Positions 75-62,021 of a stretch of 64,000 bases of DNA are shown here, piece by piece. The stretch's first letter is position 1. Every line of letters begins with the position of its first letter. Location of the stretch: the NCBI RefSeq assembly GCF_003073045.1, contig NC_037593.1, positions 24,299,868-24,363,867 on the forward strand. The letters are read 5' to 3'. The notes beneath the pieces are model-generated. The model was not told the DNA's origin. It saw only the letters and a program-made list of their open reading frames with translations, and made no database searches. Source of the stretch: Pomacea canaliculata (Eukaryota; Mollusca; Gastropoda; Architaenioglossa; Ampullariidae). Position numbers and translations under genes: made by a program.

Positions 75-1646
75 ATGATGGATGACAAACTGAGAAGAAT
101 AATTAGACAACATCGTTCACTGGTTCAGGACATTGTCATCAATGAGACGTTTCTCGCTCGGCTTCAAGACGAAGAGATCTTTCCGTCCGACCAGTTGGAA
201 AGTATCAGGGTTGGTTGTGCTTCTATGTGTGTGTTTAGGAGAGAAGAAGGGAGAGAGAATTCAATATTTATCTGCGTGGTATGAAGCACACAACGACAGC
301 GCTACCCGGATGATGACAAGTGCACTAAGTACATGGCTGCGAATACCAACCGCAAAGTTTTTCCCGGGGATCTCTGTGAATGTCAGGGTTAGTAAGCAGT
401 CTAGACTCTCCCCATGAACGGTGAAAGCTGTCGTGTAAGATTAAAGAGAAGCCATGGGACAACGTGCCTAGTCTAGTAAATAATGTAGACATCTGACCTC
501 GTAAATATGGCTTGACAACAGACGAGAAGCTCATGTTTTTAGTTGCCTTTCCTTTGTTTTAAATTTTAATATAAGTGGGTGTTACTCTCTCTCACTGACA
601 CACAGAGTAAATGTCTGTATTTTCATTTACCAAACCCTCATGGAGTCTCTTTGCGCCTTATTTCACGTGAACCAGTTTCCCGTAAATCGCTCAGTGATTG
701 ATAGTCAAGTTTAATCAGTCTTTTGGCATGACGCACGCATGAAATAGTCACACTTTTCTCAGTTGAAAGATTCTGCTTTGTATAAAAATACATTGCACTT
801 CATTTAAAAGCTAACTGGACCATACTTCAAAGGCCTTCTATTAATATATATATAAATAGATACATTATCTGATAAGAAGTGTCAGGGTAGCAGCAGTTAG
901 TGTTTCTCATTCTTTCCATCGTCATCATCAAACATCTTTTTCAGACTGATCAAGGTTACAAGATGCTGGAGCTGCTCCAAAGGCGTGGATTAAAGGCTTT
1001 TCATAAATTCATTTGAATACTTGAAACGGACTACGGCTGGCTGGCTGAACTTCTAAAAGGTGCTGAACTAAGAGAAATGTCAGGCCATAACAAAGCTGAA
1101 ATGCAAAGGAAGAAGATCATGAGCTCCACAAAGCCGGTCACACTGGCTGAATACAGTGAGCTTATCGCAAAAATCGTCGACGTGGACACGATCTTGAAGA
1201 CAGTAAAATACTCTTTGTCTTCTGATGAGAAGCAAGACATTAACTTAAAGTTAAGAGCAAGTTCGTTTGTGTGTGTGTGTGTGCATAGTATTCGAGAAAG
1301 AGACGAGAGAAAGGGAGAAGTGCGAGAATATCGTGTGTGTGCTTGTTATGTGTAATTCATTAAAATCTTAGCATTCAATATACGATTATTAATATATGCT
1401 TTTACACGTAGTCCTAAGACGACATATTATATTTGCTGATATTAATCGGGACAATAACATTTTCCCCAGAACCACCAAAGCGAAAAGGAAAAGATGGGTA
1501 AACTGCTGAATGTCATTTCGGCGAAAGAAGACAACACTTTCGATCTTCTGATAAGTGTTCTCCGAAAATACGACAAAGATCTCGCAAATCAACTGCAAGA
1601 ATACGTTGCTGATGTGGAAAAACGTTCGAAGCCACAGAACAAATGA
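75..1646 (+). pseudogene. Tandem-CARD gene copy, CARD-only type, broken
   Basis: Exons at 75-209, 945 to about 1,244 and 1,470-1,646 align closely, base for base, with the intact gene at 22,916-24,952. Exon 1 gives the first half of CARD 1 (MMDDKLRRIIRQH start, then VINETFLARL). Exon 2 gives the second half (LELLQRRG) and the start of CARD 2. Exon 3 completes CARD 2 (MGKLLNVISAKEDNTF) and ends in TGA. Compared with the intact copy, exon 2 lacks several codons at its start, a GGA codon has become TGA at 1,014-1,016, and the donor after exon 2 is lost (AAGGTAAG has become AACTTAAAG near 1,243). It cannot make the full protein; at most it could make a CARD half. Similarity runs through introns and flanks to about 1,880, so this is a segmental copy and not a retrocopy. 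Confidence 0.85.
781..840. repeat. 60-bp dispersed repeat, inverted partner at 5,427-5,487
   Basis: The stretch from TATAAAAATACATTGC to AAGGCCTTCTA is nearly the exact reverse complement of 5,427-5,487. Both lie next to AT-rich TATA runs. This may be one arm of a small foldback element or a dispersed repeat; no coding capacity is visible. Confidence 0.7.
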
Positions 1647-2117
1647 GGAGGAGCTACTAGAAGTGTGGTACTATAAACATTGTAGCCGACTAGGGATATG
1701 AGAGAGTATTTGTACATCCACATTTACAGTTTTATCAGATAATTAAGCAAGAGACGCTTAAATGCTAATTTAAGTAAAAGTACAATATTTTCGCTGTAAG
1801 ATTCTTCTCTGGGCATGGTTGTTCTCTTTGTGTTTAGAATTTCAAAGGCATCACGCCCAAGACTTTGTAAGTTGACCTGTTAATTGTGTAGTTACAGAAT
1901 TCATTCTAAAAGTAACTTCAGTGCATAATATCAATGAAATACGTTTTTACCGTTTTTCTCTCTCTAGCTACAGAATGAATTCTGTGCTTATAGAATAAAT
2001 TCTACAAGTATAAAATTAATTTTATTACTAGAAAGAAAATTCCAGTCGGTGCCCCATTCGCCTGGTGGGTTTGTTCGGAAGGTCATCATAGTCAGATGGT
2101 GCAGAACACATTAAAAA
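1647..2117. other. Downstream flank of the pseudogene, no gene seen
   Basis: Up to about 1,880 this matches 24,953-25,170 downstream of the intact copy, including the shared AATTTCAAAGGCATCA. The rest is AT-rich with repeated short ACAGAATGAATTCTG-like words and no supported gene. Confidence 0.6.
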
Positions 2118-4600: not shown

Positions 4601-5824
4601 GTTGAAAATACTAATGATGAGAAAGTATTCAAGTTGATAAATCTCCTTCTTATAAGAGGACCAGATGCCTTCAAGAAGTTTATTTACATACTCAAAAAAG
4701 ACCACAAATGGCTTGCTTCAAGCTAATCAAAACGGAAGAAATATTCAATGAAGGCTTATATATGAGCTACCAGAAAAAATATCAACTGACTAGATATCGC
4801 CCTCTCATCGAGGAAACGGTGAGGTTGACGACATCTGGAACGACGTTGAACACATATTTAACCATTCCGAGAAGATGGAAATTCAAGTAAGTCTGAATAA
4901 AAACACATTGCAGTATACACAGCAAACAATATTCTGTGAGTGTGAGAAGTGCATTGCGAACAGTATACAGGCAGCAGCGTGTGATAACTTTTAGATAAAC
5001 TGTTTTGACTCTTTAGATACTAACATCATACGGACCTGTTTTCCTTGCTAGACATTTATTGAAATCACATAAAGACTTCAAACAAACCTCAGTTTAATAA
5101 TGAAACATAAATGCATGAGTTATGTCATAAAGAACATTTTACTCAAGATTTTGTTTTGTAGTCGAGCGTGAAAAATTTCGGATACGTTTCTTTTTGCCGT
5201 TAGAAGGTTTTATGCTTACGATGACTGTTCATGCTGAAAATACTGACAAGAGCATGAACTAATGTTCATCGGGATGTACCCAAGTTTGCGACAAATGTAA
5301 TGTTCTCCCTGAAAGTATTATAAAGTGCGAAGGATATGAAATCACAACAAAGAAAACAAGAATATTACATTCCCTACATGGATACTCTGACACTTCTTAT
5401 CATATATCTTATAATATATATCTATATAGAAGGCCTTTGAACTGTGGTCCAGTTAGCTTTTAAATGAAGTGCAATGTATTTTTATACTAAGCGGAAATTT
5501 TCGAAAAACTCGTCTCTTCCTTCTGGATTTCTACAAGCATGTCATGTAACATACTTCGCTATATATTTATATATCTATTTTCTGCACAATGAGTATCATG
5601 TAGACCTGGCTGTTAATTAAAACACAAGATACGTCGTTTAGTGTTCATGTTAATATAAATAAAATATTACACTTGATTACAGACACAGCCAAATTCACTT
5701 GAAGAAACTGAAGAAAATGCTGGATATATTAGTACATAAAAGCGATGCAGCTTTTCGTCATTTGGTTGATGCACTCCGACAAGTGGACAGAAGGCTGGCA
5801 GGTCTTCTAAGCATGGTACTTCTG
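4601..5824 (+). pseudogene. Tandem-CARD relic, exons 2 and 3 only
   Basis: Exon 2 (4,601-4,886, after TTTTGCAG) reads VENTNDEKVFKLINLLLIRG and PDAFKKFIYILKKDHKWLAS, the second half of CARD 1, and then meets TAA at 4,724. Coding resumes in other frames, and the end gives the start of CARD 2 (GEVDDIWNDVEHIF) before GTAAGT. Exon 3 (5,683-5,824) gives MLDILVHKSDAAFRHLVDAL, the rest of CARD 2, one base out of phase with exon 2, and a GTGAGT donor. No first exon was found upstream and no middle or coiled-coil exon downstream. Exon 3 is closest to that of the gene at 8,703-10,748. This is a decayed member of the tandem-CARD subfamily. Confidence 0.75.
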
Positions 5825-8702: not shown

Positions 8703-10748
8703 ATGAACAGAACACACCGAGAGATTTTACAGCGGCACAGCTATACACTGACCACTAGGTTGACACTTGACGAAAACTTCATTCGTTTGTGTGAGGCAAT
8801 GTCTCTCATTACTCCTGCCATGAAGATTTCTATCATGGTAAGTGACCGTCTGTATATAAGTGTATTTAAGGCCTGATATTGTTTTAGTTACTGGCGTGTA
8901 TGAGTAAGTACACATGCGTGTATATGTAAGTCTGCCTGTATCTTTTATGCATAAGATAGAAATTTGGATTATTTAGACTACAGGTGCACACGTACCTTTC
9001 CATTGTTATCTAAAGACGAACACGGAAGTCAACAAATGGATTTGTGGTTACAGAGATAAATATATACTCTGTAGTGTGAAGTGAATAGATAGCGGCAACA
9101 GCTTGAGTAGAAAGTTAATATGTGACGAATGTACATGTAGTGAAATAATTCAGTTTTTCTCCCGCACGTCTAGCTGTAAACACTAGACAATGCAAAGACC
9201 TCTAGATCATCAACAACCAGATTCTCAGGTCTGCAACTGTTTTCAATGAAAGACCCCGCAACCTTAGTAGCTAACCATATAACTATAGCTAACCCCTAGG
9301 TAACGTTAACTACAAACGAGGTGATGTGATTGCAGCTTTTTGTATGTGAAATTAAGTTGCATAAACATTTGTTTACTAAAGAGGTACTTTAGAACTTAGT
9401 TGGTCTTTGTTGGTACTTTGTCACGAATATAAATGTCAAATGACCAAAGATGTAACCTCTGACGACACCGTGACTGACACAAACAGCTAGTATAAGGCCT
9501 CCCCCCTAAGTCCTAAGGGATGCACCCCCCCCCACCTGTATATAAACACAATCTTTTACACAACGGAACTCACCTCACAGAGGAGCACCCAGCTGACATA
9601 GGAGTATTACTTAAATCTTAATTACTAACCAAGATCACACTCATAAACAATCATTTTTTGAAAACACACACACACACGTGGAACTGTCCCCTGAGGATGG
9701 AGGTAAGATGTCCTATCATTAAGTGCTAGGTCACAGTATTGTTAATTAAAGGGACAACTATTACACGAGGAATAGTGAAAAATGTTGATTGCAACCAAAT
9801 TTTTATTTCCTAGGCTGAGAAAAGCGACTCTGAGAAAACATCGAGGTTACTGGACTACTTGCGACGAGGAGGGCCAAACACATTCAGGACTTTTGTTTAC
9901 GTGCTTCAACAAACTGAACGTGGTTGGCTCGCTTGCAAGCTAAACAATGCCGTAGAAATAGCTAATGCAGAGGGAGAGATGAGTCCCGAGAGAACAGCCA
10001 AACTGCAGCAATGCCGTCAGGAAATTACGATCATTCCATTAGATACGATTTGGGATGAAGTAGATCATATTTTCTCTCCTGATGAAGAAGTACAAATTAA
10101 GGTAACTGTCCTTTAAAAGCACGTGACCACAATTACTACAATTTAACTGAGGAATCTCAATTGTCTTCTACAGGTATCTACTTTGGGTAGCTTTGACAAC
10201 AGCAGCTTCATGCAACTAATTTTCAAATCGCTTTGATCATTATCATTAGCACAACTGTTCCATCACTTGATGTAGATATTTATTGTCTACTAACTCCACT
10301 ATTGCTGGTTTACATGTAATAGTCCTCGTGTCAGTGCCTTAGCGCACAACTGTTCAAAAATTAAGACGGACTTAGCCATCGCTTAATGTCATAACATCTT
10401 AATGTCTCTTTAGAACCATCACGCAGTCTATTCAGTTTTCATAACTGTACTTTTGTAATGTATTTTCAGCATGTTCTATACATCAATATACTTATTGAAT
10501 GATCTGTATCTCATTTGAGAAGAAGACGGAGCGCAGACTGTTTATTTGTGCCAAACTGACAATAACACCTATTTACAGGACGCAAAGCAGTAACGAAATG
10601 AAAATGGCGACACTACTGTATATATTATCAAGTAAAAGCGACATGGCATTCGACCATCTGGTTAGAGCTCTAAGAACGGTCAAGCCAGAGTTGGCAGGTC
10701 GTTTGGAGCACGGCGCGCACGAGGAAGAAAGAAGACCTGAAAATCAAG
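8703..10748 (+). CDS. Tandem-CARD protein, middle and coiled-coil exons absent
   Basis: Exon 1 (8,703-8,837) starts at ATG and encodes the first half of CARD 1 (MNRTHREILQRH, then LTLDENFIRLCEAM), ending at GTAAGT in phase 0. Exon 2 (9,814-10,101) carries the second half (LLDYLRRGGPNTFRTF), a linker, and the start of CARD 2 (DTIWDEVDHIFSPDEEVQIK). Exon 3 (10,579-10,748) gives LLYILSSKSDMAFDHLVRAL and ends at GTTAGT, phase 1, as in the full gene at 26,153. The acceptor of exon 3 is one base out of phase; read literally it meets TAA after four codons. No middle or coiled-coil exon appears before the next duplicated block at 11,459. It is either a short CARD-CARD protein with an assembly indel or a decaying copy. 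CARDs mediate homotypic assembly in apoptotic and innate signalling. Confidence 0.65.
8838..9813. other. Intron 1 of the CARD gene at 8,703
   Basis: No other gene is seen. It contains C-rich runs (about 9,502-9,532) and a short CA run (about 9,665-9,676). Confidence 0.55.
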
Positions 10749-11458
10749 GTTAGTTAGATTGTCTGATGCTTTTTTTACTTGATGTCCACTCTCACTTCTG
10801 TTTATCTGTCGTTAGACACTAACCCTGCCAAACCCACGACAGCTTGTTTTATCCACTTATCGTAAGCAAAAGCATTTTAACTAACAACATATCTGAATGG
10901 CTAGAATTATAAATGCTTTGAAGATGTAATTGTCCTGCAGTTGCGGGTATACATTAGTGTCTACATTTCCTTGTTACTAATATTTTTGTTAAAAGAAAAG
11001 ATACATTGTAATTTGTGCGGTTATACAATTTTCATCCTTTAATTTCAGTTCGTGTGTTACAGCCTGCCTTTTTACATTCATTTCATAATTGTGTGCATTG
11101 TTTTCATGCGCATTTGTTATTTTAGTGGTACGCATTTGGCACCTTAAATAATGTTATGCAGTTCAACTGTTATAGTAAAATAGTCTTAACAGCCTTACAA
11201 AAACCTGTGGCTTTGCTAAACATTTTTAAAAGATTTTCTAGTTTATACTAAAATTCGTCTTGCAGATTAGTAACTTTTAGTCTGTGGTTCATTCGCGGTA
11301 CTTTTTCTCCTTCGTTATATCTCGTCCCTTTTATACACTGATAATACAGCTTCGTTTACTTGCAAACTCAAAAAAAAAAACCTTTATCATGAACGACTAA
11401 TTATTTTTGATTCTAAATGTTTAAAGAGATCAGCAACACGCCTATAACAGACTCGACA
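10749..11458. other. Spacer where middle and coiled-coil exons would be expected
   Basis: In the paralogue at 26,153 the next exon follows about 540 bases after exon 3. Here I find no similarity to it on either strand, only AT-rich sequence. Confidence 0.5.
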
Positions 11459-12700
11459 GAAGATGAAGAACTAGTTCATCGACCAGAAAAAGTGTTGGAA
11501 GCAGCAAGGATTCAGAGAATATCAACGGAGTGTTAAAAAGGCAAAAAGAACATCATAGTGAGCTACAAGTCTGTTGACAACGTCAACGTACAGCCTCCTA
11601 CGTCACGTGTCTTATGAAGAGGAGAGCAACACAGACTGTACTGGAGAACAGTATGAGTGATACGAGAACTTTGGCTATGCATGGCATGATGTGAACCTTC
11701 GTCTTTCTGATTAAAAAAGCTGATAACATTTTAAGGAGGGGAAATGGACTGCTTGTAAGTGAAGAGTGTATACATGGTATTCTAGAGGGATATAGGGAGG
11801 TGTAGATGGTATACAAATGGGAGAACAGTATGTGTGGTATGGAGTGAGAACAGTGGGTATAGTATGGACAGAGAGACAGAAGAGTCAGCAACTACAATAG
11901 TTTTTTTCCTAATATTACCTCTTTTAAGTTACACTCGATTTCCTCCTTCGTATTTTCATCAATTCAATCATCTTAAACTTTTTTCCTTTCTCCTCTTCGT
12001 TGTGTCCAGTTTAAGATTCGCAAAATAAAATATTCTGCAATAAATTTAATCTCTTGAAACCGTTTGTTGCTTTGTCATGATGTTTTTATTAGCGACTGAA
12101 GGACACACATGTAAAAGAAAACAATTTATACTTACGATAACTTAACAAGTAATAACACTCTTCTTTTTCTTGGTCCTGTGGTGCAACAGCTAGCACCTGT
12201 CACCATGCAAATCTGTGAAGACTGGATGTCCTACGTTCAGCTCTTGTCTCGGGCACACAGTTTTTTTTTCTGTCTACATGTGGCATCTGTTTACAGGGCT
12301 GGTTGCTAGGCGTGATACAGGCTTAGTTGCTGGCTCTGTATTAAAATTATCCCACCGCACGCGTCTTCTCGTTATTCTTGCTGACAAAAATACCACCAAA
12401 AAATACTGATTTTGAGTGAAAACAATGTTACTGTTACAGCTAGGCTCAAACCCGTCATGTTCCTGCCCATTACACCACATAACTCACACTTTGAAAAGGA
12501 AACTAAAGAGATAAGATAAAAGAGGAGAAAAGGACTGACAAGAAATGTCATGTTAGTTTTATTTAGATTACTAAGATTCTCTCATGCTGAAATCATGAAC
12601 ACACGACAATAAAAAGTCAAAGCACGAGGGAAGATCCGTTGTCAAGTCGATCACAGTGACGTAAACTGTCATGGCGACCATGGTGCGTCACTAACGACAG
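11459..12700. repeat. Non-coding duplicated block with a CRE-like end, copy 1
   Basis: Beginning AGAAGATGAAGAACTAGTTC, this aligns with 31,220-32,236 in the same orientation over nearly its whole length. The main difference is an extra segment at about 12,174-12,440 here. Near the right end both copies keep AGTGACGTA followed by GTCATGGCG and CCATGGTG, a CRE-like word in a less diverged patch. Open frames are short and differ between copies, so no gene is called. Confidence 0.8.
12174..12480. mobile_element. SINE-like insertion with tRNA-like sequences at both ends
   Basis: On the + strand TGGTGCAACAG (A-box-like) is followed by ACGTTCAGCTCTTG (B-box-like) and a T run. On the minus strand at 12,441-12,480 TGGTGTAATGG and GGGTTTGAGCC give a second tRNA-like head. 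The second head is also present at 31,975-32,013 in the duplicate block, but the intervening body is not. The body therefore entered this copy after duplication, or was lost from the other. Exact ends are uncertain. Confidence 0.55.
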
Positions 12701-12899
12701 TCAGCGGTCACGTCACTCACACACTGATGGCGTCACTCGCGTCTAGTAGACCTCCCACGGAAAGCAAATGGTGTAGAGCCCTCAGATTTCTGGAAAACGA
12801 CCGGCTAGCAATGACGTTCGGTCACGGGTCAATTCACGCGCGAAAGGAGTAGCGCTGCTCAGGTGTCGGAGAAAACGACAAAGATGTTGTGACAGGTGT

Positions 12900-13350
12900 T
12901 TCGCCTTGTTATCAAGACCAGCCGACACCTTACAAGCTCGTGTAAGGCTTTCTTCGGAAATAGACCCAGCACACTAAGAACAATTAATTCACAAAGGAAA
13001 ACCCAAAGCTTGTGGCTGCTATACTTCCTTCATTGGTCCTGAATCGTTCTCGTCATTGGCATACGACAGAAAGTATGAGCAAGCAGAAAAGGACATACAG
13101 CGTGCACTGACCCATGTTACCCCAGTTGCCAGAAGAAAAAAAAAAAGCAAGCACTATACTGACTTTGTCATTACATGCAGCACTTGACAAGTCAAGACAC
13201 GCGCATGGTCCTTGTTAAGGTATGTGTACCTCAAGTCGAACTACAAGCACAAGGGTAGGAAGCTTTGAACTGGATCACGCCCTGGCTAAATGATTTGTTG
13301 TGCAATGGTATTGAGTAGGCGTAGAAGCACTACTAATAAAAAGCATCATC
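12900..13350. repeat. Non-coding duplicated block, copy 1 (intron-derived)
   Basis: From TTATCAAGACCA through GAAATAGACCCAGCACAC to AGAAGCACTACTAATAAAA this aligns with 33,236-33,690. The partner lies inside intron 1 of the CARD gene at 32,916-35,412. This copy is therefore probably intronic sequence left after a second-subfamily gene was lost here. Confidence 0.8.
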
Positions 13351-22807: not shown

Positions 22808-22915
22808 TGTCTTCTCTTCATGAAACCATATCGCGGTTATCGTCAGGAACGAACAACTCTGCGGAAGACGTCTGGTCCTTGATGTCTGTGAAAGTTTGAG
22901 ACTGACTGCCAGAGC

Positions 22916-24952
22916 ATGATGGAGGACAAACACAGAAGAATGATTAGACAACATCATCACTTACTGGTTCAGGACATTGTCATCAATGAGACGTTTCTCG
23001 CTCGGCTTCAAGAAGAAGGGATCTTTCCGTCCGACCAGTTGGAAAGTATCAGGGTTGGTTGTGCTTCTATGTGTGTGTTTAGGAGAGAGGAAGGGAGAGA
23101 GAATTCAGTATTTATCTGCGTGGTATGAAGCACACAACGACCAGCGCTACCCGGAAGATAGCAAGTGCACTATAAGTACATGGCTACCCCGGGATCTCTC
23201 TGAATGTCAGTGCTCAGTAAGCAGTCTAGACTGTCGTGTAAGATTAAAGAGAAGCCTTGTGACAACGTGCCTAGTCTAGTAAATAATGTAGACATCTGAC
23301 CTCGTGAAAGTGGCTTGACAACAGACGAGAAGCTCACGTTTTCAGTTGCCTTAATAAAATTGGGTATTAAACAAATCCAGTCAATGTCAGTATTTCCGTG
23401 TACTAGTCATGATGAAGTATTTGGGTATTATTTCACGTGAACCAGTTCCGGTAAATGGATCAGTGATTGATAGTCAAGATTAATCAATCTTTTGTCATGA
23501 CACGCGCACGAAATAGTCACACTTTTCTCAGTTGAAAGATTTTCTATTTTCAATCTTTAGCCGTTAGTGTTTGTTATCCTTACCATCGTCATCATCAAAC
23601 ATTTTTTTTTTCAGGCTGTGACGGACAAGTATGATCAAGGTTACAAAATGCTGGAGCTGCTCCAAAAGCGTGGACCAAAGGCATTTCATAAATTCGTTGG
23701 AATACTTGAAACGGACTACGACTGGCTGGCTGAACTTCTAAAAGGTGCTGAAGTAACAGAAATGTCAGGCCATAACACAGCTGAAATGCCATGCAGATCT
23801 CAACCTACACAAGAGGAAGACCAGACTACTGCCGAGCTGCCAGCCATGGCTGCGTCCACTCAAAAGACAAGGAAGAAGATCATGAGCTCCGCGAAGCAGG
23901 ACGCACTGGCTAAACACAGTGAGCTTATCGCAAAAATCGTCGACGTGGACACTGTCTTGAAGACAGTAAAATCTTCTTTGTCTTCTGATGAGAAGCAAGA
24001 CATTAAGGTAAGTTTAAGAGCGTGTTTATGTGTGTGCATGGTATTTGAGAGAGAGAGAGAGAGGTGCGAGAATCTTGATGCATCTATCTAATAACTACTG
24101 AAATCTAAGAGAATTGTTTGAACTCAGATGGACTTATCTTCGTTTAATAGAAATGTAGAAGGCGCTACGAAAGCACAAAACTTACCATTGATAAGGTCAT
24201 AGTTACCCGTGCTCCAAGCTCGGAGAAAGACATTATGCCATGATTATGATTAACCTAAGATATGGTTTCCAAAACAAATTGAGCATTAAGCAATGTATTA
24301 TTATTATTGCAAAAGTCTTGTAAAAACTTGTCAGCATTTTTTTCCCTCGGCTCGAGTCTCTCAAAGACATAATTTGCATTTTCTCAACGAAAGCAATTCA
24401 AAAGAAGTAAGGCTTATAAACAAAACTAAACACGCAGAAGGTAAAAGACTAAGAAATACAAGCCAAGGTACCAAAATAATATTTTAAATCCAAATTTGTG
24501 TTATCCTACAATAGGGTTGCACTTTGACTCGCCCGTCAAACAGCAATCGCTTGATAGCTATTTTGTAAATCTGCATTTTTTTTTTTTAATGTAAGGGCCT
24601 TCGAAGTGCGTGCATGCGTATGAGTGTGTGTAAGTGCGTTTGCTGTGTATAATTCACGAACACTCTCAGCATTCAAGATTCATTAATATATGCTTTTACC
24701 CGTAGTCCTAAGACAACACATTGTATTTGCTGATATTAATCGGGACAATAACATTTTCCTCAGAGCCAGCAAAGCAAAAAGGGAAAGATGGGTAAGCTGC
24801 TGAATGTCATATCGGCGAAAGAAGACAACACTTTCAATCTTGTGATAAATCTTCTCCGACAATGCGACAAAGATCTCGCAAATCAACTGGAAGAATACGT
24901 TGCTGGTGTGGAAAAACGTTGTAAACAACAGGACAACTGTAAAAACATTTGA
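22916..24952 (+). CDS. CARD-only protein with two CARDs (239 aa)
   Basis: Exons 22,916-23,053, 23,615-24,007 and 24,764-24,952 join in phase 0 to one open frame of 239 residues. CARD 1 is split by the first intron: MEDKHRRMIRQHHHLL and DIVINETFLARL, then YKMLELLQKRGPKAFHKFVG. The core LLQKRGPKAF is the helix 4-5 signature of caspase-2/CRADD-type CARDs. A charged linker of about 60 residues (QPTQEEDQTTAEL) follows. CARD 2 is KIVDVDTVLKTVKSSLSSDE plus MGKLLNVISAKEDNTFNLVI. The frame ends in TGA with no usable donor, so this member lacks the middle region and coiled coil of its paralogue at 26,153. Human CARD-only proteins act as decoys; that role here is inference. Donor 1 (AGG|GTTGGT) is weak, so retention of intron 1 is possible. 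Confidence 0.8.
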
Positions 24953-26152: not shown

Positions 26153-26616
26153 ATGGAGGAGAGACACAGAGCCATTATCAAAGAGCATACCCAACAACTG
26201 GTGAAGGATATCGTCGTCAATGAGGCGTTCCTCGCCGCCCTTTCAACAGAAGAAATCTTTCCGCCTGATATGGAGGAAACTATCAGGGTATGTACATGTG
26301 TGTGTGTGAGAGTGTGTAACTACGAACACATGCGCGAGCTCACAAGTACGTAGCTGTGAATGTTCGGTGAAATAGACTGAAAGACGCATGCATATCTAGC
26401 TTAATCTTTAACCTATTAAATGAGACCATCCGTGGGGAGTACAACACCATAGTCAGCGGTGGGTTGAAGGTGTAGAGTGTGTTGTTATCAATGGTTACCG
26501 AGACGACGGTTAAACTGCTCTAATCCACGTGAGATGCACGTTCGTCTTTCTGTCAAATCAGTTTTACTACTCTGTGAGACATCAGTAGACATCGAGTTAA
26601 AGAATCAAAGGTCTGA

Positions 26617-26664
<48 letters not shown>

Positions 26665-29600
26665 AAATAGTTTTATTCATTTTTAATTTGCTATGTGTCT
26701 ATGAACGAAATCTTAAAAAATTATTTGGAAATGGGCAAGATCGTACATGTTGCAGGCAAAGAAAGCTAACCACAAGAAAATCTACAAATTGCTAGAGCTC
26801 TTACCAAGACGAGGACCGACTGCTTTCAAGAAATTTGTGAGGGTGCTGAGGGAAAGCTATGCCTGGATTGCCGACATGCTCACAGCTGCTGATGAAAGGC
26901 CGACGAAAGACCAGTTCATGAGCCCAGTGAGACAAGTCGCACTGCACAACTGTCGTCTCGACAAACCGGAAGATATCGACTTCAACATAATCTGGAGCGA
27001 AGTTCAGTCTCAATTTTCTTCAGAAGAACAACGAGAAATCAAGGTAAGTTAATGTAACTATAACACACACACATATATGCACGCGCAAGCACACACATAC
27101 ACACATTTACACACACTCTCTCTCACACATAAATTATCTAACGGTATTTACTACGAAGCCACCTTTCTCCTTATTGTTACACTGTGCTCATTATTAGCTC
27201 ACATATCTCCCTGTTGTTACCCCGTGATTAGAGGCTAACTTGGTAGTTTTCACTAAGAAAATGAATGCTCCTACACAGAGCAAACCTAGCGGAAAAGAAA
27301 TGGAGAAACTGCTGGATGTCTTAGCGAGAAAAGATGACATGGCCTTCGATGACGTGCTGGCTGTTCTTCAAAGTCACTGCCAATGGTTAGCAGACGAAAT
27401 AGAGCACCAGGTTTCTGAGGAGGAAAAGCGCTGGACGAAACATGGTAATGCTAGACAACTAAAATTGTCTCACTCTTGTTTCCATAGATACAATGCGATG
27501 CCCAGACCTCGCGGACACTACGTCACGTTTCTCTACCCCAGGGCATCTTTGCCACCGTTGTATAACTACAGCCCCAGGGACAAAACATCTGCGAGGTGTG
27601 GACACTGCTTTATAAGTCTGGAAACAAGTCGCTTGTACTTAAATCCTCGACTTAAACCTCAGAGAAACGACTTATGTTCGTTACAGAACTACAGTCTCAT
27701 CAACATTAAAATACAAATAGTCTTATTTTCTTTCTTGTGTGCAAGTTTGTGCTTGGTAGTTGGGGCTCACACACACGCATTCACATGTCTGTGTGCGAGG
27801 TGTGTGTTTGCGTATGCCAATGTGTCTTTTTGTGTGTTTATTTATTCACTAACCATGTTGCTTTGTCCTTGCTAAAGACACGTGACAAAAGGTTTCATTC
27901 GCCAACACTTTTTTGACTATAATGACTCTAATGTCAATCGTATGATCTGAAAATAATTACTCATGTCTTTTGTGGGTGTTTCAAGACATCAGAACAAAGC
28001 TGTCTCAGGCTCTTCGGGCGTCAAGAATCCCAGACAAGCAGAAAGATAATATCATTGAAAGGCTGACGGAAGTAGTGGAAAAGGAGATTGCCAAGTCCAA
28101 GCGAGGAAGCGTCCTTAATCATAAAATGGAAGCTCAGATGAACACTGTCACCAAAAAGATTCAGCTCCTTATACTGAAAGATGTAAATCCACTCATCTAC
28201 GGCTCAGTGGACACAGACTTGCCGACGACAGATGATGATCAGGACGCAATCGAAGCGTTGAGGAACAAGCTGGATAGTCTGAAGGTGCTACAGAAATGTT
28301 ACGAAGCCATGAACGTAAGTGACCTCCACAAGGTAACGAAGCTTATGCTAAAGTACAAACCTATTTTCAGTAGTATGATACGACTGGTGTCCAGTCACTT
28401 AATCCCCAGACACTTCATCCCCGACACTTCATCCCCTAGACTTTTAATCCTCAGACACTTCATCCCCGACACTTCATCCCCTCCGATCATTAGCTTACCT
28501 TTCATATTAACAGCAATTACCTCGCGAACACTCAAGAACAATTTTCATATCATATTGTTGAAGAACATTAAATTTACTAGCTTATATCAATTTTAACTAA
28601 TGTTGTAGATGTTCAAATGACGTTGAAGTTAATAGCATGATTTGAATTTGAATTCTTTGAATTTCAATTAAATTTTTCGCTGACTTCATAATTTTTATAG
28701 TTAAGGATTTAGTTTAGGGATTAAGTGTCTGGGGATGAAGTGTCTGGGGATTAAAAGTCTAGGGGATGAAGTGTCGGGGATGAAGTGTCGGGGATGAAGT
28801 GTCTGGGGATTAAGTGACTGGGAACCGATACGACTGATTTCCTCCGGATAAGAAACAGAAAGAGGGAAAATACCAGTCAGGTATACTGGTAATAGTCCGG
28901 TACCCCAGTGGTAAGATTCGCTTCTCGTTGCTTCATTGAGAGTCATGGTGTAGGGTTCAGCCCTCGTCTCGAGAAACACGTCATCCTGGACGCAGCACTT
29001 AATAAATAGTGCTAGACCATCAGGGAATTTCTCTTGTACCTCCCCTTTGTTGCCCCTTTCCCTTAAAGTGTGTTATGACACCACTTTAAAACCCTTTCTT
29101 GGCCAAATAATCCAAACTGACCGTAATATCAGTCACGCATGAGTCGAATAAGTAAGCGCTCAAAATCTATTCTGATCATGCTTAATTAACAGATACTCTA
29201 TGCCCTTCGTTTGTTTGTGGCAATGTAAATACTACGTACCAATACAGTATCACAGTTTTGACCCCTTCTGTGAGGCGTATTGACGCTTTGAGGATTGTAT
29301 TTAATGAAATCTTTATGTATGTATATTTAAATCTCATTGTAGTAAACTATAAAGTATATGTCGCAGATCACATACAGAAGAGGCGGCGACACACTCCCTG
29401 TCCTCCTAATGCAGAAGATAGATGAGGTTCAGGCTATTGTCGAAAATAATAAGCTGGGCAGAGAAGGTGAACATCGCGAGTTGCAGGAGCTGAACAAAAA
29501 GAACAAAGAACTGGAAAGGGAGTTAATCAGACTCAAAGAACTTGAAGGCGAAAATAAAAGACTGGGAAATTTAAGGAAGCAAGCAAAGAAAGCAGTTCGT

Positions 29601-30023
29601 ACACTGAAAGACGAAAATTTGACGATGGAAAAAAACAAAATGAAAACTGACGAAGAAAATGAACGGCTTCAATCCCAGCTGCAGATAATGGAGGATAGAA
29701 TGTTGATATTGATCAAAGGGAACGACAACCTGAACATTCAGAATAGTAAACTCCAAAGGGATAACCAAAAGCTTTCTGCAACAATTGCCCAACTCAGACT
29801 GGAATCTGGAACAAACTATATATCCTTTGTTGACCGGTTAAAATCTGTAAATAAAACAATCATAAATGAAAACCTCAGGCTAAGGACAAAATACAACAAG
29901 CTGGAGGAAAGCAAGCGACAGAAAAATATACGTCTGCAAAAAGTCCTTGTTGAGAACGAGTTTCTCCGACAGCAGATACAGAAATTAAAGCGCATTGGTG
30001 CACACAACTCAACCACACGATGA
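26153..30023 (+). CDS. Tandem-CARD, middle-domain, coiled-coil protein (524 aa), intact
   Basis: Five exons (26,153-26,287; 26,756-27,043; 27,279-27,444; 27,986-28,314; 29,367-30,023) join in consistent phases (0,0,1,0) to 524 residues without a break. CARD 1 (about 1-85): MEERHRAIIKEHTQQLV, then YKLLELLPRRGPTAFKKFVR. CARD 2 (about 115-190): IIWSEVQSQFSSEEQREIK, then MEKLLDVLARKDDMAFDDVL. A helical middle region (about 197-305) follows, with IIERLTEVVEKEIAKSK, QMNTVTKKIQLLI and IEALRNKLDSLKVLQKCYEA. The last exon is a long heptad-rich coiled coil. The fourth exon uses an AAG acceptor instead of CAG. By analogy with CARD9/CARMA, an assembly-forming signalling adaptor is likely; the partner is unknown. 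This is the best reference copy of its subfamily. Confidence 0.88.
26616..26664. repeat. (AAC)n microsatellite in intron 1
   Basis: An uninterrupted run of about 16 AAC units. Confidence 0.9.
28387..28826. mobile_element. Foldback element with long inverted arms and 10-bp target duplication
   Basis: The arms start GTGTCCAGTCACTTAATCCC on the left and, reversed, GGTTCCCAGTCACTTAATCC on the right. Each is over 80 bp and built of short units such as CACTTCATCCCCGA. The core is AT-rich and non-coding. GATACGACTG occurs exactly on both sides (28,377-28,386 and 28,827-28,836). Long inverted arms with a 9-11 bp duplication are typical of Mutator-like (MULE) elements, so I assign it tentatively to a MULE-derived MITE. 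It lies in intron 4 of the 26,153 gene. Confidence 0.8.
28891..29100 (+). mobile_element. tRNA-derived SINE
   Basis: CCAGTGGTAAGATTCGC resembles the A-box part of a tRNA-Glu/Gly type gene, and about 45 bases on GTAGGGTTCAGCCCTCG gives a B box. A body and T/C-rich 3' part follow. It also lies in intron 4 of the 26,153 gene. Confidence 0.65.
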
Positions 30024-32915: not shown

Positions 32916-35412
32916 ATGGACGACACACACCGACTCATCTTACACGCTACCGTCGGAGACTGGCTGACGACATCATCATCACTGAGAGGTTTCTGGCACA
33001 GCTTGAGGAGGAAGGCATCTTTGAACGGGGCATGGTGAATGTCATCAAGGTAAGTAATAGAAACTTGTGAAGTGCATACATGTCTTTGTACCTTTGTTTC
33101 CATATTTGGTCATCTCTTTGGTCACTGCAATGCTTCCGTCCTTTATCGTCGTCGTTGTTGTCGTCGTCCTCACTTTTCTTCTGAGACCATTCTTCCTGCC
33201 GAAAATAATATTGCCGATAGGCGCTACCCAGATATTTCGCTTGGTTATCAAGACCACGCTACACGCTACACGGGGGAATGTGGGGTAGTGGGCTATCGTC
33301 CGATTTTTTGGAAATAGACCCAGCACACAAAGAAAAGGAAAACCCCAAACTTGGGCTGTTACTTCCTTCATTGGTCCTGAACCGTTCTCGTCATTGGCAT
33401 ACGACAGAAAGTATGAGCAAGCAGAAAATGATATACAGTGTGCACTGACCCATGTTATCCCAGTCGCCACCAACAAGCATTATACTGACTTTGAGTCATT
33501 ACATGCATTTGACAAGCCAAGACACGCGCATGGTCCTTGTTAAGATGTGTACCTCGAAATACAAGCACAAGGGTAGGAAGCTTTGAACTGGACCATGCCC
33601 TGCGTAAACTGATTTGTTGTGAAAAGGCATTAAGTAAACATATAAACATAGAAGCACTACTAATAAAATGCATCATCATCAGCATCATCAACCGTAGTAG
33701 TCAAAGTCGATGCTATTGTCTTTGCAATAAAGTGATCCAGGGGATGTACATCCATAATTTTTGTTTATACTTGCCTGCACTTCTATTTGACCGTCGGAAC
33801 CGTCGTCCATATCCTTTTAGCAAAGAGCACAAGTATAAAATCTTGAGTAAATGCCAACACATGATGTTTTCTCATTTTATTTTATAAATTGTCTTACGGA
33901 GTTATTTCTGTGATAAAGCCACTTCTATCCTCGGGGTAGAGTAGGTGAGAATTAAACCTCAACAATGTGTGCAGGGGAAAAACCGAATCTGAGCAGATCT
34001 ACAAGCTGTTGGAATTGCTTCCAAAGCGAGGACCAGAAGCTTTCCACAAGTTTGTGTCGGTGTTGGAGGACGACTACTTTTGGCTTGCTGAGCTGCTGAC
34101 CAAGGCGGAACCAGCGAGACGCAGAAGTCACAACGAGTCTGTGGCTGCTGATGCATCTCAAAATGACGGTCAGTAGTCAAGATGTTTTGTCTGCTCACCC
34201 TTCGAACCAGCGTGCATTTGTGTCCATGTGATGGATACAATCACATATTCAATGCGTTTTGGAAGCGAGAAAGTATTTTCGAGTAGGCTGAGTGTAAGAC
34301 TTTACTAAAGTTCTTTTTTCTTTTCCGCCCCTCAAGGCTTGAAATACTTTGCCTTTATTATTTGCACAAAGACATGAAGACTTACATGCCGAAGAGTGTA
34401 CAGTGTACAAATTTCTTTAGTGTTCGTGTGCGATTGAAGAGGGAGTTATAAGGTGTGATACATGGACACAAGTAAAAAATTATGACTGTATAATCCTCTA
34501 GGAAAGATGTGTCGTAAGAAGTTCTATACTACCATGTTTTTGCCCACAGAAATGCCCAGAGAACGAATGACCTGTGACACTGACATCAAGAAACTAGTTG
34601 GAACTTTCGTGCACAAACAGTTCGGCCAGAGCAAGAGGATCAACGAGAAGGACAAGAAGATGATGGAGAAGTTCCTGACGGAGCAGATTCAGACAGAACG
34701 AGACCAATATCAGGCAATGCTTCGCTCGGTTACACCTGCATCCTCCGATATGTCTCGCGAGGATGGGGACGATGAAGTCTTTCGAAACATCGAGATTCAG
34801 GAACATCTGGTCCGCATGTACATTAAGATCAACATCCACCTCAACGCAGACGACCTACACGAGGGCAGCATTCTTCCAGAGGATCTCAGTTTCGATGTCA
34901 TTGTCGAGAAATTAGATAAGCTGAGTGAGAAGATAAGGAGATTGGAAAGTCAGACAGCGAAATGTTTGGGCTACTTCGAGAACTCTCCACAGGGCGCGTC
35001 CTTGCCGCAGCTGGTGGCAGAACTGCATTCAACGAATGTCAGAAATCAGAAGGAGCTGAAATTGAAAAAAGATGAAATGGACAAACTTTCGAAGGAAGTA
35101 AACCACTTCGCTGATGTTATTAACAGATTGGAGATCGATAGAGGTAGCGTACGCCGTGAACGTCAACAAGAAAAGAACCAACACCAGCAGGACATGGCAG
35201 TCCTGTTGGAGAAAATCTCGCAGCTCGAGAAAATCAACAGAAAACTTGTCGAGGAGAAAATGTCGGCAGTTGCCTCTCAGATGGCGCGGAACTCGGTGCT
35301 TCAGGAGCCTGTGATAGACGTGAGTAACAGGAGGCGTAGAACTAACTACAGAAAGCAATCCCAGGTCAGAAATGCACCCAAGAAAAAAGGAAAACCCGGA
35401 TTTAACATTTAA
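32916..35412 (+). CDS. Single-CARD, middle-domain, coiled-coil protein (about 396 aa)
   Basis: Exon 1 (32,916-33,049) begins MDDTHRLILH, then one base is missing; the next frame continues YRRRLADDIIITERFLAQLE to VNVIK and GTAAGT. Exon 2 (33,975-34,168) holds IYKLLELLPKRGPEAFHKFV, one base out of the expected phase beside a G4A5 run, and ends at a phase-1 donor. Exon 3 (34,550-35,412) is open throughout: DTDIKKLVGTFVHKQFGQSK, QEHLVRMYIKINIHLNADDL and FDVIVEKLDKLSEKIRRLES (middle region), then a coiled coil (about 265-365) and a basic tail (RRRRTNYRK, PKKKGKP). The two one-base anomalies cancel in phase, but most of exon 1 would be misread as written. Assembly error or early decay are both possible. 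It is the sister of the gene at 38,773. Confidence 0.75.
33236..33690. repeat. Duplicated block inside intron 1, copy 2
   Basis: Partner of 12,900-13,350. Open frames on both strands here are not kept in the other copy. Confidence 0.8.
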
Positions 35413-38772: not shown

Positions 38773-41255
38773 ATGGAGGAATCGGAAAAAAGGGTCTTGA
38801 GTCAGTTCAGGACACGACTAGCAAATGAAATTGTTGTGACGGGCAGTTTTCTAACGGCTTTCTGCAACAATTCCGTCCTAGACGATGAGATGTCTAGATT
38901 AATGAAGGTAAGTTCGATGCTGTTCACTGAATTACCTCTGATAGATTCTAGTTTACTACGTTATGTTTGTTCATAGTGTTTGTCTTTCTAATGAGAAAAA
39001 TGTTCACTCTATGAACCATCAAGTAAACATCAAAACTTAGTCATCCGGAGTGAGGAAAAAAAAATCAGTGACAAATCTTCATTCAAGGGATTAACACACG
39101 CACGCCAGGAAGACGGGTAGAAGGGGAAAAAACAGAGGAGGAGAAAAATGGAGGGAGGGAGACATAGGTCTGATAAAGCTGAGATTTTTTATAATAATTT
39201 TATGTAAATAGCCAGATTTCTTGGTCTGCTGGCATCATCAGGGGACTGAGTGCAGGGTACAGGGACAGCAAAAAAAGGTTAACATTTCCTATATAACGGC
39301 TTTTCTCTATACAGTCAGATGAGAGCTATGTGGCCAAAGCGCACAAGCTGTTAGATCTTCTGCCCAAAAGGGGCTCCAGGGCCTTCAGCACCTTCCTGGA
39401 GATCCTGGGCATCACCAACCCCTGGATCGCAGAGAAGATGAAGAGCGCGCTGCACGAGGAGAGAACGAAGGAGGCCAAGCTCAAGATCAACTCGCACATG
39501 GGAGAATCAGGTGAGACTGAAATACCGGTCATTCTTTTCTCTCGATGGCCTTGCGGCTGGACCTCCTATTCATGCTGCAAGTGGTGGAACTATATATATA
39601 TATTAATATTCTGAGGTAGTCAAATAAAACATAGCGGTCACCACCAAATAGAAACCAAAATTCACTGTTTCATTTGACTAAAACTTAATTATTAATTTTT
39701 TTTTGCTGCATGTGTGTTTCTGACAACCGAGCATAAATAACTTTTCAATCAAATAGGTGTAGCTCGGTAGAATTCACTAAACAATAAGCATAGTTTTCTT
39801 GTATCAAGCGTCCATAGAAGGCTACTGTGCCTCCTCCTTGCGCCACGTAGACATGGACATCAAAGCCACGGCGAACCGCTTTGTGAGCAGCACTTTGCAT
39901 CAGCTGACGGAATCTGAGCAGCGAAACATCGAGAAATGGCTGAGTGAAGAACTACAAAGGGAGAGACGACGGCAACAGTATCTTCTGCCAAACAACATAC
40001 ATCGACACCCACAGGTAGTCAGTCTTCGCGTGACACAGTAACAACACAGACCTGGGTGTAGGAGCTCTCTGCTTTGCACACACACCAAACATACCTCACA
40101 ACACACACACACACACCTGTGAGTGACAACAGTAAGCATGTTTCTTATGAACAGAATCCTTAGGACAAGAGAGGATTTGACTCTTTCTGGTGAAGCTTTG
40201 TGCAAAAGGCGTTTCTTAAATGAAAATAGTCCTTCCTATTGTTTTATTCGAACGAAGTGAGAGTGTATTTGGTGAATCTTATACAGGAGTTCCAGTCTAC
40301 CAAAGAGGTCCAGACAGAGACCACAGGTATGGAGATGCAGGAACTCTGCGAGGACCTGATAGTGCAGCTCTACGGAGTGGACTACGTCAAAATGAACTCT
40401 GACCTGAGCTTTAAAGCTCTTCAGAGACAGGTGAGGTCCTTCTGACTGCTCTCATCGTCGTCGTTATCTCGGCATCTCCAGAATGTGAAGTATCGCTAGG
40501 GTTGTAATCATTATCATCTATCTCTATCCACCTCTTACACCACTTCAACTTTACGGTTAAGAAAAGCTAAATACTCGTATTCAAGTGCATACCCACCCCT
40601 AAAAAAGCAGTGATTTGTAACTAGGGTATGATGTGAAAGAGACGGACCTCGACTTATTTCTTCTGTCTTTCATAGTCCTTGATACATCAGATATCATTTG
40701 TTGTGGTGTGGATGGAAGAACTTTTCCAAATTCTTATACGAGGGAGCTTTGATCTCACGACTTCTGGTTCAAAGTCGAGCGTATTACCAAAGATAAGACA
40801 TAGAGAAGGTGCCAGCAACACGATGATTAGTAAACAATACAATAAGAATAAAACCATTCTTTTGCTGCCAGATCTCAGAACTGCTGGCGAGGGTTCACAA
40901 AATGGACTTCCTATTTCTGGAGTGCATGGACAAGTTTGACGATAGGGACCGATACACTCGGACCCTTCCGGAGCTGATCGACAGCACCATCCACCATCAA
41001 AAGGAACTTCGCAACGCTCTCATGGAAAGCCACCGCAAGATCCAGCGGCTAACAGACGAAAAAGACAGTTTGGAGCGACATACCCACAGGCTAGAGGAGG
41101 AATACGAGCATCTGGTGAAGAAGCAAGGACAGTCAGTGGTGTACCCTCAGCAGCTGTACCTCAAGAAGAGGCGCGAAGTTCAGATGAAGTACACCGCCAT
41201 GTCGAGACCGGCCAGAAGCCAGCAGCAGAGCCAGCCAGCGCACGTGGCGCGATGA
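38773..41255 (+). CDS. Single-CARD, middle-domain, coiled-coil protein (354 aa)
   Basis: Five exons (38,773-38,907; 39,315-39,510; 39,809-40,014; 40,287-40,430; 40,872-41,255) join in consistent phases (0,1,0,0) to 354 residues. CARD: MEESEKRVLSQFRTRLANEI, then AHKLLDLLPKRGSRAFSTFL. Middle region: DIKATANRFVSSTLHQLTES, WLSEELQRERRRQQ and QELCEDLIVQLYGVDY; the same helices occur in the 32,916 paralogue but are spread over more exons here. Coiled coil: about 255-325 (RKIQRLTDEKDSLERHTHRL). The tail is basic. Base composition is more G+C-rich than in neighbours, which suits sustained expression and constraint. The stop overlaps the ATG of a further open frame (next entry), so the real C terminus may be longer. 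Confidence 0.82.
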
Positions 41256-43471: not shown

Positions 43472-46326
43472 ATGGAGACAACAAGAGAAGAACCGCAGCA
43501 TCAGCAGGAATCTGATGGCAACATCACGGACCGTCACTTCCGCTCGCGACACACGGCGGCCATGAGCCCGTGAAACAAGCGACACTCCTCAACTACCACC
43601 TGGCCATCGAGGACAGCGTCGACGTGGACAAGATCTGGACTCAAGTAGAACCCGTGTTTTCTTCTGAGGAACGGCTGGAAATTAAGGTAAAGAAGTGCTC
43701 GCATGTGTGTGTGTGTGTGAGAGAGGGAGATGATTGTGTGTGCGCGAGTTCGAGAAATGATGAGCTGTAAGTCACTCGCCATAATTTTTCTTTTACTAGC
43801 AGATCAGACACGTCTTAACCCTTTACATCTAACATCTAACGACTGTTGCTATCACTGGGAAACTAAAGAAATAACATTATCTTACAGACCGTGGACAATG
43901 GCAAAGATTCCATGAAAAGAATGTTGGATATTTTATCGACGAAAGGACGACGCAGCTTCGATCACCTGGTGCGGCTCTGCGAGCAGACTACAAATGGCTG
44001 GCAGATCGACTAGAGCAAGGTGTTGCCGATGAAGAAAACCGTTTGAACAAGTTGGGCAAAGGTAATTTCATTTGGACCAACGTGTTTGCTAGATGACATT
44101 TTTCAAAAAACTCTACATCCATCGTCCTTTTAACGCAGGTTGACACAGCATAAATATGTATGTGATTATGAAAGACAGAGGAAGAGAGAGAGAGTGACTG
44201 TTGGAAGTGCTCAAATTTATGTATATAAAGTAATATATGCGTATAAAGTAAATATAAGATGTAACCAATCCTGTAAAGTGTTAAAGATCGCAAGCTTTTT
44301 GTAAGTCAGTTCCCCCTATCTCTTTCTTTTCCCCTCTCTTTCTTCGTTCTCTCTGCCTTTCCGTCCTCAACCCTGCAAGGTGTCAGACATCCGTTACAAT
44401 ACTCAATACTCATTGCTTTAACCAAAATAATCGCCACTAACTTTTCTCATTTGTTCCTTCACTGGAGTCAGGCATCAAGCGCAAGCTGGCTCTGGCTCTA
44501 CTGACAGCAAGGATCTCCGACAGACAGAAGGACAGCATCCTCGAAAGGCTGACGGAAGTCGTGGAGGGCGAGATTTCCCAGAAGTCCGTGCGAGTCAGCA
44601 TTCCAGATCATCGTGTGGCGGCTCAGATGGATACGATCACCAAGAAGATTCAGTTTATTGTTCACGAAGAGGTGAACCCAGTCCTCTACGGCAAAGGTGC
44701 CACGTCCACCTGGGAGACAGACGACCCTGACAGCGCCATTGAAATGTTGAGAAACAAGCTGAATGAAATGAAGGTGCTTCAGGACTGTTATAAGGCTATG
44801 AAGGTAGGTGAAATCAGTCATGTCATACTGTTATAAGGCTATGAATGGAAGTGAAATCAGTTGTCATACTGCCATCACGTGGAGTGGCACCATGCATGCA
44901 ATGTTATTATTTCTTTGCCTCAGTTTCTCATTCTCCTTCTTTTCTGTTTTTGTCATGTACTGTCGAATACTGGTTGCTTTTATCTCTATGTTTGTATGTC
45001 TGCGTGTGTGAGCGTGTGTGTGTGTGAATAAGAGATAAAAAAAAGGGGTGGAGGGAGAGAGATAGCAGACCGAGTACTCAAGTTTACATTAAACCATTCA
45101 TGTGGTAGGGTGCGTTCGTATTTCCTTGTCAAAATATCGACTTCTGAACTTTTATCCATGTTAAGATATTTTAATCCCTGTAATCTCAACAAGCCATTGC
45201 AAAGAAGGAAAGAGGGATTTACTCTTGTCATTCTAAAAAAACAACCTGGGCGTTTTTCAGATCACGACCAAAACAAGTGAAACCCTTCCTTCTCTCCTGC
45301 GACAGAAGATTGACGAGGTGCAGGTCGCGATGGGAATTCTTCAACAGGAGAAACAAACCGCCGAGAAAGAAATGAAAAGGGTGAATAAAGAAAACGAAGA
45401 CCTTGCAATATCGCTGTCCAGGACTGAACAGAACAACAGACAGCTGGAGGTTGAAAACCACTCACTGCAGGCTGAAAACAAACAGATGGAAGAGTCGCTA
45501 CGGCGTCTGCAATCTGGCAAATGGGAGTCGGAGAAAGATCGAGAGAAAGGTGGAGGATGAGAACGAGAAGTTAAAATCGCAGATACAGGTACAACATGAC
45601 AAAATATCAGAGCTCGTCGTCTGGAACAAGGATCTCGACATCCAGAACACGAAGCTGACGAGGGACATCCAGAAATTTTCCACCGCCAACGCCAAGCTGC
45701 GAAAGGAGTGCAAGCCTGGCAGTGGCAAGATGGTTGCCAAGCTAAAATCCGAGCACAAAAAGCTGACAGAGGAACGTTTGAGACTAAAGAAGGACGTTCA
45801 GAAGCTGGACGAAGACAAGCGGAAGTTGACCATTCGTATGCAAAAGCTCACTTCCGAGAACCAACACCTTCGAGATCAGAAGAAGAAGCTGGCCTCCGAA
45901 AAAAAGAAAGCTGTAGCCGAGAACAAGGAGCTGAAAAAGGAGGCCAAGAGGTTAGCGCTGGGCAAGCAAGTGGTCCTGCCACCTATTTCAGATAAAAAAG
46001 ACAGAGATCGAGCTAAGGTCAAGGATGGGATGACTGTACAGAGTAGAAGCGAGAGGTCCAGGTCACCCAACAGAGAAGACCAATCAACCCACCTCTTAGA
46101 TGATGGCGCGAGAAAGAAAGCAGACGACTCGCCGTGGAACAAGTACAAGGAGGATACAAGACGACACGGATCTGGCGACCAAGAAAATGACATCTTCGAT
46201 GACAGCGACAAGGCGTCGAAGAAGCAGCCATCATACATGGTGTCCACCGCCAGCTCCAGAAGGAAAGATTATCTCAGCAGCAGCTTCAGGGAGGAGTCGC
46301 CCACACCAACCGCTGCTCATAAGTAG
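43472..46326 (+). CDS. CARD-2, middle-domain, coiled-coil protein, first CARD lost
   Basis: The order is exon 43,472-43,686, exon 43,888-44,061, exon 44,472-44,803 and exon 45,261-46,326. The first exon has a new N terminus (METTREEPQHQQES), then MSP and, one base shifted, VKQATLLNYHLAIEDSVDVD and FSSEERLEIK, the start of CARD 2. The second exon completes CARD 2 (MKRMLDILS, then YKWLADRLEQGVADEEN) but three small indels interrupt it at 43,935-43,985. The third is an intact middle region (ILERLTEVVEGEISQKS, MDTITKKIQFIVHEEVNP, IEMLRNKLNEMKVLQDCYKA). The last is a long coiled coil with one frame change near 45,525, then a Ser/Arg-rich tail (RSERSRSPNRED). Exon ends and phases match the gene at 26,153. 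About five one-base breaks sit in well-conserved sequence; assembly error or recent decay cannot be told apart here. Confidence 0.7.
44784..44868. repeat. 43-bp tandem duplication across a splice donor
   Basis: The stretch ACTGTTATAAGGCTATGAAG plus GTAGGT and 17 following bases is repeated directly after itself. The second unit reads AATGGAAG at the donor position, so only the first donor is usable. Confidence 0.85.

Positions 46327-59516: not shown

Positions 59517-59575
<59 letters not shown>

Positions 59576-61971: not shown

Positions 61972-62021
<50 letters not shown>

What the first reader, a model, noticed from the sequence alone, without database searches (positions are those of the whole stretch)
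75..46326. Array of CARD / helical-middle / coiled-coil genes
Eight CARD loci plus one exon relic lie in one orientation. CARD cores (LLPRRGPTAF, LLPKRGSRAF, LLPKRGPEAF) are seen directly. Members combine two, one or part of a CARD with the same middle region and a coiled coil. CARD plus coiled coil is the known plan of CARD9/CARMA adaptors, but tandem caspase-2/CRADD-type CARDs ahead of a coiled coil are not a family I can name. This is the strongest candidate for an undescribed signalling system.
Basis: partly seen in the sequence, partly recalled or inferred. Interest (0 to 1): 0.8.

Follow-up and report, generated by a model that had tools for sequence, protein, structure and literature searches.

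The report
Snail cluster of CARD–coiled-coil genes
A cluster of eight related gene copies in the golden apple snail, two of them complete and most of the rest broken, encodes proteins that join cell-signalling CARD domains to a coiled-coil rod, probably a variant of known immune and cell-death scaffold proteins.

Summary
The array is real. The window lies in Pomacea canaliculata (one contig length equals the published scaffold N50). Eight loci on the + strand carry CARD exons. Two are complete gene models: 26153-30023 (CARD, CARD, middle, coil; 524 aa) and 38773-41255 (CARD, middle, coil; 354 aa). 22919-24952 is an open CARD-CARD frame without middle or coil. The other five (A, B, C, F, H) have a stop, a frame or phase break, or missing exons.

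The first CARD is genuine (Pfam 9e-17 and 3.1e-8) and closest to human RAIDD/CRADD. Its phase-0 intron lies where the CARD of a snail CARD-caspase locus has one. The only genome match to human CARD9's CARD lies elsewhere, so this does not pass as the CARD9/CARMA family. All 13 matches to E-middle, F-middle and G queries, and 8 of 9 to exon 2, lie in this array; other animals could not be searched.

"The same middle region" holds clearly only within pairs E-H and F-G. Best reading: a birth-and-death family of coiled-coil CARD adaptors; function inferred. New variant of a known kind.

The parts
78..1625 (+). Locus A: exons 78-209, 945-1241, 1473-1625 (CARD-CARD); in-frame TGA near 1014 and exon-2 donor lost; no middle or coil found: pseudogene
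   Evidence: 79-85% DNA identity to locus D; A-D exons 1-2 dN 0.087, dS 0.076
4604..5809 (+). Locus B: decayed pieces of exon 2 (4604-4720, 4824-4883, different frames) and exon 3 (5702-5809)
   Evidence: E 7.8e-21, 0.0026, 1.2e-9; TAA inside
9814..10735 (+). Locus C: exon 2 (9814-10101) and exon 3 (10583-10735); exon 3 one base out of phase; no exon 1, middle or coil found
22919..24952 (+). Locus D: open three-exon CARD-CARD frame, 238 aa, no middle or coil found (22919-23053, 23615-24007, 24764-24952)
   Evidence: Pfam CARD 3.3e-17 in two stretches and CARD_2 1.9e-10
26153..30023 (+). Locus E: complete five-exon gene, 524 aa: CARD1, CARD2, middle region, coil (26153-26287, 26756-27043, 27279-27444, 27986-28314, 29367-30023)
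26153..27043 (+). Locus E exons 1-2: CARD1, cut by a phase-0 intron after residue 45, and the first half of CARD2
   Evidence: Pfam best stretch residues 7-88; RAIDD 3crd, query residues 1-94, E 4.8e-6
27279..27444 (+). Locus E exon 3: second half of CARD2
   Evidence: Pfam CARD 4.2e-4 for CARD2 alone, below cut-off; CARD2 clade 92/94 with D and C
27986..28314 (+). Locus E middle-region exon, five predicted helices at low confidence, no Pfam match over cut-off
29367..30023 (+). Locus E coil exon
32939..35412 (+). Locus F: single CARD (32939-33049, 33976-34168) with frame and phase breaks, then an open middle+coil exon 34550-35412
38773..41255 (+). Locus G: complete five-exon gene, 354 aa: one CARD, middle, short coil (38773-38907, 39315-39510, 39809-40014, 40287-40430, 40872-41255)
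   Evidence: open frame, GT-AG introns; Pfam CARD 3.1e-8; RAIDD 1.3e-10
43564..46326 (+). Locus H: CARD2 first half (43564-43686), CARD2 second half in two frames (43900-44042), middle exon (44474-44803), coil about 45261-46326 with a frame break near 45547

Best explanation
This is a tandem family of oligomerising CARD adaptors, confined to this array within its genome as far as the searches see. The coil and helical middle region would multimerise the protein and hold several CARD1 domains (CRADD/caspase-2 type) together, so that they seed a CARD-CARD assembly with a CARD partner, most likely one of the snail's own CARD-caspases or another CARD adaptor. CARD2, found only in some members, is a diverged second CARD, perhaps an internal copy, that either extends the assembly surface or regulates CARD1 within the molecule. 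The CARD-only member D, if expressed, would act as a cap or decoy. Shown: the gene models, CARD identity, RAIDD as nearest solved relative, an intron position shared with a snail CARD-caspase locus, the separate CARD9-type locus, tandem duplication and decay. Inferred: multimerisation, partner, decoy role, immune or cell-death setting.
For: CARD1: Pfam 9e-17 in E, 3.1e-8 in G, 3.3e-17 for the whole D product. RAIDD is the best solved relative of E and G; human RAIDD searched against the whole genome hits locus G first of 12 (E 1.2e-4), a C8 CARD being close behind (6.2e-4). CARD1s form a clade (89/84), CARD2s another (92/94). The phase-0 intron in both CARDs matches, within about two residues, that of the CARD at C2:1162720, with a caspase-domain match 3 kb downstream on the same strand; oyster caspase-2 CARDs are also two-exon (PMC7836458, passages). 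F coil: helix 151-249, pLDDT 66 in its first ten residues and 78-92 after. E-H middle dN 0.32, dS 0.85. Duplicated blocks A~D, 11458-13354~31221-33681 and 2118-2478~30435-30837.
Against: No expression, interaction or structure data. CARD2 of E alone is under Pfam's cut-off. RAIDD does not group with CARD1 in the tree, 16 of whose 20 inner branches are unresolved. CARD2 of D is nearer to CARDs elsewhere in the genome than to array CARD1, against a simple internal copy. Most copies are broken. Heptad signal is modest in E and F. Middle models are weak (pTM 0.28 and 0.54).
Confidence: 0.5

Rival explanations
1. A divergent branch of the CARD-CC (CARD9/10/11/14) family that signals through Bcl10 and the MALT1-like paracaspase.
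For: Same plan of CARD then coiled coil; [quoted passage not shown]). CARD9 is the second solved relative of G's CARD, though at E 0.06.
Against: CARD1 of G: RAIDD 7.2e-11 against CARD9 0.06. Human CARD9's CARD finds only one place in the genome up to E 10, C11:9191377 (8.4e-6), and pairs with it in the tree (93/86). The C11 CARD is open in one frame where array CARDs have an intron.
Confidence: 0.12
2. A decaying family with little present function: most copies are pseudogenes, and E and G are survivors by chance or in the course of loss.
For: Five of eight loci are broken or partial; A and D diverge with dN about dS.
Against: E and G keep five exons, all splice sites and open frames; E-H middle dN/dS about 0.4. 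Some frame breaks could be assembly errors.
Confidence: 0.22
3. CARD-bearing inhibitors: proteins that cap or sequester CARD-caspases rather than activate them, as CARD-only proteins do in vertebrates (recalled).
For: D is CARD-CARD only; no catalytic domain matched in D, E, F or G; intron position shared with a snail CARD-caspase locus.
Against: Coil and middle in E and G argue for multimerisation, which usually promotes assembly (inference).
Confidence: 0.16

Closest known systems
CRADD/RAIDD (CARD + death domain adaptor)
   Same: Nearest solved relative of the first CARD
   Different: No death domain in E, D, F or G; coil instead. The snail has CARD and Death matches 1.3 kb apart on one strand at C9:25580234-25581891, with another intron position and phase in the CARD
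CARD-CC family (CARD9/10/11/14)
   Same: CARD followed by coiled coil
   Different: CARD type, intron in the CARD, extra CARD2, unassigned middle region; the snail's CARD9-type CARD is elsewhere
Caspase-2-type initiator caspases of molluscs
   Same: CARD on two exons (PMC7836458, passages); phase-0 intron at the equivalent place in C2:1162720
   Different: None of 28 genome-wide caspase-domain matches lies in the window
Tandem-CARD receptors NOD2 and RIG-I (architecture recalled)
   Same: Two CARDs in a row; CARD2 of D is the best stretch for the Pfam CARD_2 model
   Different: No other receptor domain matched in the E, D, F or G products; the rest of the array was not scanned for them

Membership tests
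CARD (Pfam PF00619) | Match over the curated cut-off across the whole domain | tested here: met
   E 61.3 bits, G 34.0, D 62.7 against 23.9; F from exon 2 on only 19.9; CARD2 of E alone 20.7
CARD (Pfam PF00619) | Six-helix death fold | not testable with these tools
   Every CARD is split by an intron and the folding tool takes contiguous translations of the DNA; spliced products were not sent
CARD-CC (CARD9/10/11/14) | CARD of the CARD9/CARMA type | tested here: not met
CARD-CC (CARD9/10/11/14) | Coiled coil after the CARD | tested here: inconclusive
   Long predicted helix in F; heptad contrast reached by 13, 31, 9, 0 of 500 shuffles for E, F, G, H
CARD-CC (CARD9/10/11/14) | Binds Bcl10 | not testable with these tools
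   Needs a binding experiment
CRADD/RAIDD | RAIDD-type CARD | tested here: inconclusive
   Best solved match but not grouped in the tree
CRADD/RAIDD | C-terminal death domain | tested here: not met
   No Death match in E, D, F or G products; none of 19 genome-wide matches lies in the window
CARD-caspase | Peptidase C14 domain | tested here: not met
   None of 28 genome-wide matches lies in the window

The most novel reading that the evidence does not exclude
A separate snail signalosome: a tandem family in which RAIDD-type CARDs were joined to a new helical domain and a coiled coil, some members then gaining a second CARD, making a scaffold that activates initiator caspases without a death-domain platform. 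Distribution outside this genome is untested.
Probability: 0.25. Interest if true: 0.6.

Novelty: new variant of a known kind. Interest (0 to 1): 0.42.

Why it matters
Coupling of a CARD to a coiled coil is a core plan of immune signalling and is known from the CARD9/CARMA line. A snail family that reaches the same plan with a different CARD type, plus a middle region for which no relative was found here, would be an independent solution and a small, testable case of how CARD scaffolds arise, gain a second CARD and decay.

Tried and rejected
Rejected: membership in CARD-CC (CARD type and separate CARD9-type locus); membership in CRADD (no death domain). Led nowhere: searches for a relative of the middle region. 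Pfam gave only sub-threshold matches; NCBIfam was tried with the E product only; a PDB profile search gave E 0.18 at best; Foldseek gave no match at E up to 0.001 for either model, the E model's most probable one being 5wp3_B (probability 0.90, E 0.70, TM 0.55), which I do not credit on a weak model. Profile comparison of the two middle types was not above shuffles. A six-row exon alignment misaligned fragments (not used further). In one search minus-strand loci were translated in the wrong orientation; redid them. PHROGs and PADLOC were not searched. Relatives in other animals could not be searched: the collections offered hold prokaryotes, viruses and plasmids, besides this genome. Papers: searches listed none on this gene family by title or abstract start; they cover open-licence PMC only. 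I saw passages of PMC6129957, PMC9334734 and PMC7836458, and the outline, abstract, passages and section 5 of PMC5978004; the rest only as search listings. The coil exon was not searched genome-wide, nor was exon 1 or exon 3.
Full report
Where it is. The window is G000:C4:24299868-24363867 of a 440,159,624-base genome in 24 contigs. One contig is 31,531,291 bases long, exactly the scaffold N50 that the golden apple snail genome paper gives for Pomacea canaliculata (PMC6129957, passages). I take the species as P. canaliculata.

What is there. Gene E has five exons with GT-AG introns in phases 0, 0, 1, 0. Gene G has five exons in an open frame of 354 residues with GT-AG introns. D is an open CARD-CARD frame of 238 residues that ends soon after the second CARD. 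The remaining five are broken or partial, as set out in the observation check. Some one-base breaks (C, F, H) could be assembly errors; I could not test that. A genome-wide Pfam CARD search exon by exon gave 17 matches and none in the window, since each array CARD is cut by an intron.

CARDs. Pfam's best CARD stretch in E is residues 7-88 (whole protein E 9e-17, two stretches; CARD2 alone 4.2e-4, under cut-off). G has 3.1e-8, D 3.3e-17 in two stretches and CARD_2 1.9e-10. Among solved structures RAIDD is first: 4.8e-6 for E, with caspase-9 next at 0.15, 1.3e-10 for G, 7.2e-11 for the CARD of G alone, where CARD9 has 0.06. In reverse, the human RAIDD CARD finds locus G first of 12 genome-wide matches at 1.2e-4, a CARD on C8 following at 6.2e-4. 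In a 23-row tree CARD1 of D, E, F and G group (89/84), CARD2 of C, D and E group (92/94), and human CARD9 groups with the snail C11 CARD (93/86); 16 of 20 inner branches are unresolved, RAIDD's place included.

Introns. CARD1 and CARD2 of E are each cut by a phase-0 intron at corresponding places, roughly after helix 3 (helix numbering recalled). The CARD at C2:1162720 has a phase-0 intron at the equivalent place, within about two residues, and a caspase-domain match 3 kb downstream (C2:1165750); a second such pair lies at C2:1178750 and 1181034. That each pair is one gene was not shown. The CARD near the Death match at C9 is cut elsewhere and in another phase. Oyster caspase-2 CARDs are two-exon (PMC7836458, passages). 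CARD2 of E and of C is nearest, outside the CARD2 group, to CARD1 of E, which fits an internal duplication, but CARD2 of D is not.

Middle and coil. The E middle exon finds 2 places in the genome, E and H; the F middle finds 1, itself; the G query finds 10 places, all in the array, five of them G's own exons. Exon 2 of E finds 9 places, 8 in the array and one weak match at C9 (E 0.34). So the family is confined to this array as far as these searches see. E-H and F-G are clearly homologous pairs; between pairs the signal is weak or absent, though in E, F and G alike a phase-1 intron joins the last CARD exon to the middle. Models of the middle are all-helical and of low confidence (pTM 0.54 for E, 0.28 for F with coil), without PDB matches at E up to 0.001.

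History. A and D are 79-85% alike in four pieces over 22-1876 and 22863-25170; 11458-13354 matches 31221-33681 in three pieces (77-81%); 2118-2478 matches 30435-30837, downstream of E. A tandem block duplication followed by decay of one copy explains this. A-D, exons 1-2, dN 0.087 and dS 0.076 suggest no constraint on at least one of the two. E-H middle dN 0.32 and dS 0.85 suggest past constraint, as do, on few codons, E-D exon 1 (0.32, 0.79) and exon 3 (0.54, 0.94); dS was above 2 or undefined for the other E, C, D, F, G and H comparisons.

Context. The same genome holds a single-exon CARD + coil-like gene (C5, L033 3733-4935, Pfam CARD 2.3e-7) and a two-CARD stretch at C8 (second CARD 30.9 bits over cut-off; first 2.5e-4, below cut-off). 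CARD plus coil, and CARDs in tandem, are therefore not unique to this array.

Mechanism. The plan (homotypic interaction domain plus multimerising rod, no enzyme matched) points to a scaffold. By the known behaviour of CARD9-type scaffolds (recalled) I propose that multimerised CARD1s nucleate a CARD assembly, with a CARD-caspase as the likeliest partner because of CARD type and intron. None of this has been shown.

Verdict. Real, mostly decayed, with two complete genes; a new variant of the CARD-scaffold kind, not a member of CARD-CC or CRADD by the tests made.

Noticed in passing
48538-63811: Downstream of the array, + strand exons with sushi (3 of 10 ORFs scanned), WSC (4 of 10) and sub-threshold C-type-lectin-like (2 of 10) matches, probably one or more secreted or membrane receptors.
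   Followed up: partly
L033 3733-4935 (G000:C5:18155232-18156434, - strand): Single-exon CARD + long coil-like gene elsewhere in the same genome, with a different CARD.
   Followed up: partly
G000:C8:29102809-29103858 (L037): Two CARDs in a row elsewhere in the genome, the first weakly RAIDD-like.
   Followed up: partly
G000:C2:1162720-1166028 and 1178750-1181258: Two neighbouring CARD and caspase-domain pairs, candidates for tandem initiator caspases.
   Followed up: partly
28391-28481 and 28717-28822: In the fourth intron of gene E, two arrays of a 14-15 base repeat whose units are reverse complements of each other, about 240 bases apart: a possible foldback element.
   Followed up: no
11458-13354 and 31221-33681: Duplicated block (77-81% identity in three pieces); exon 1 of locus F falls in a stretch present in the second copy only.
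   Followed up: no
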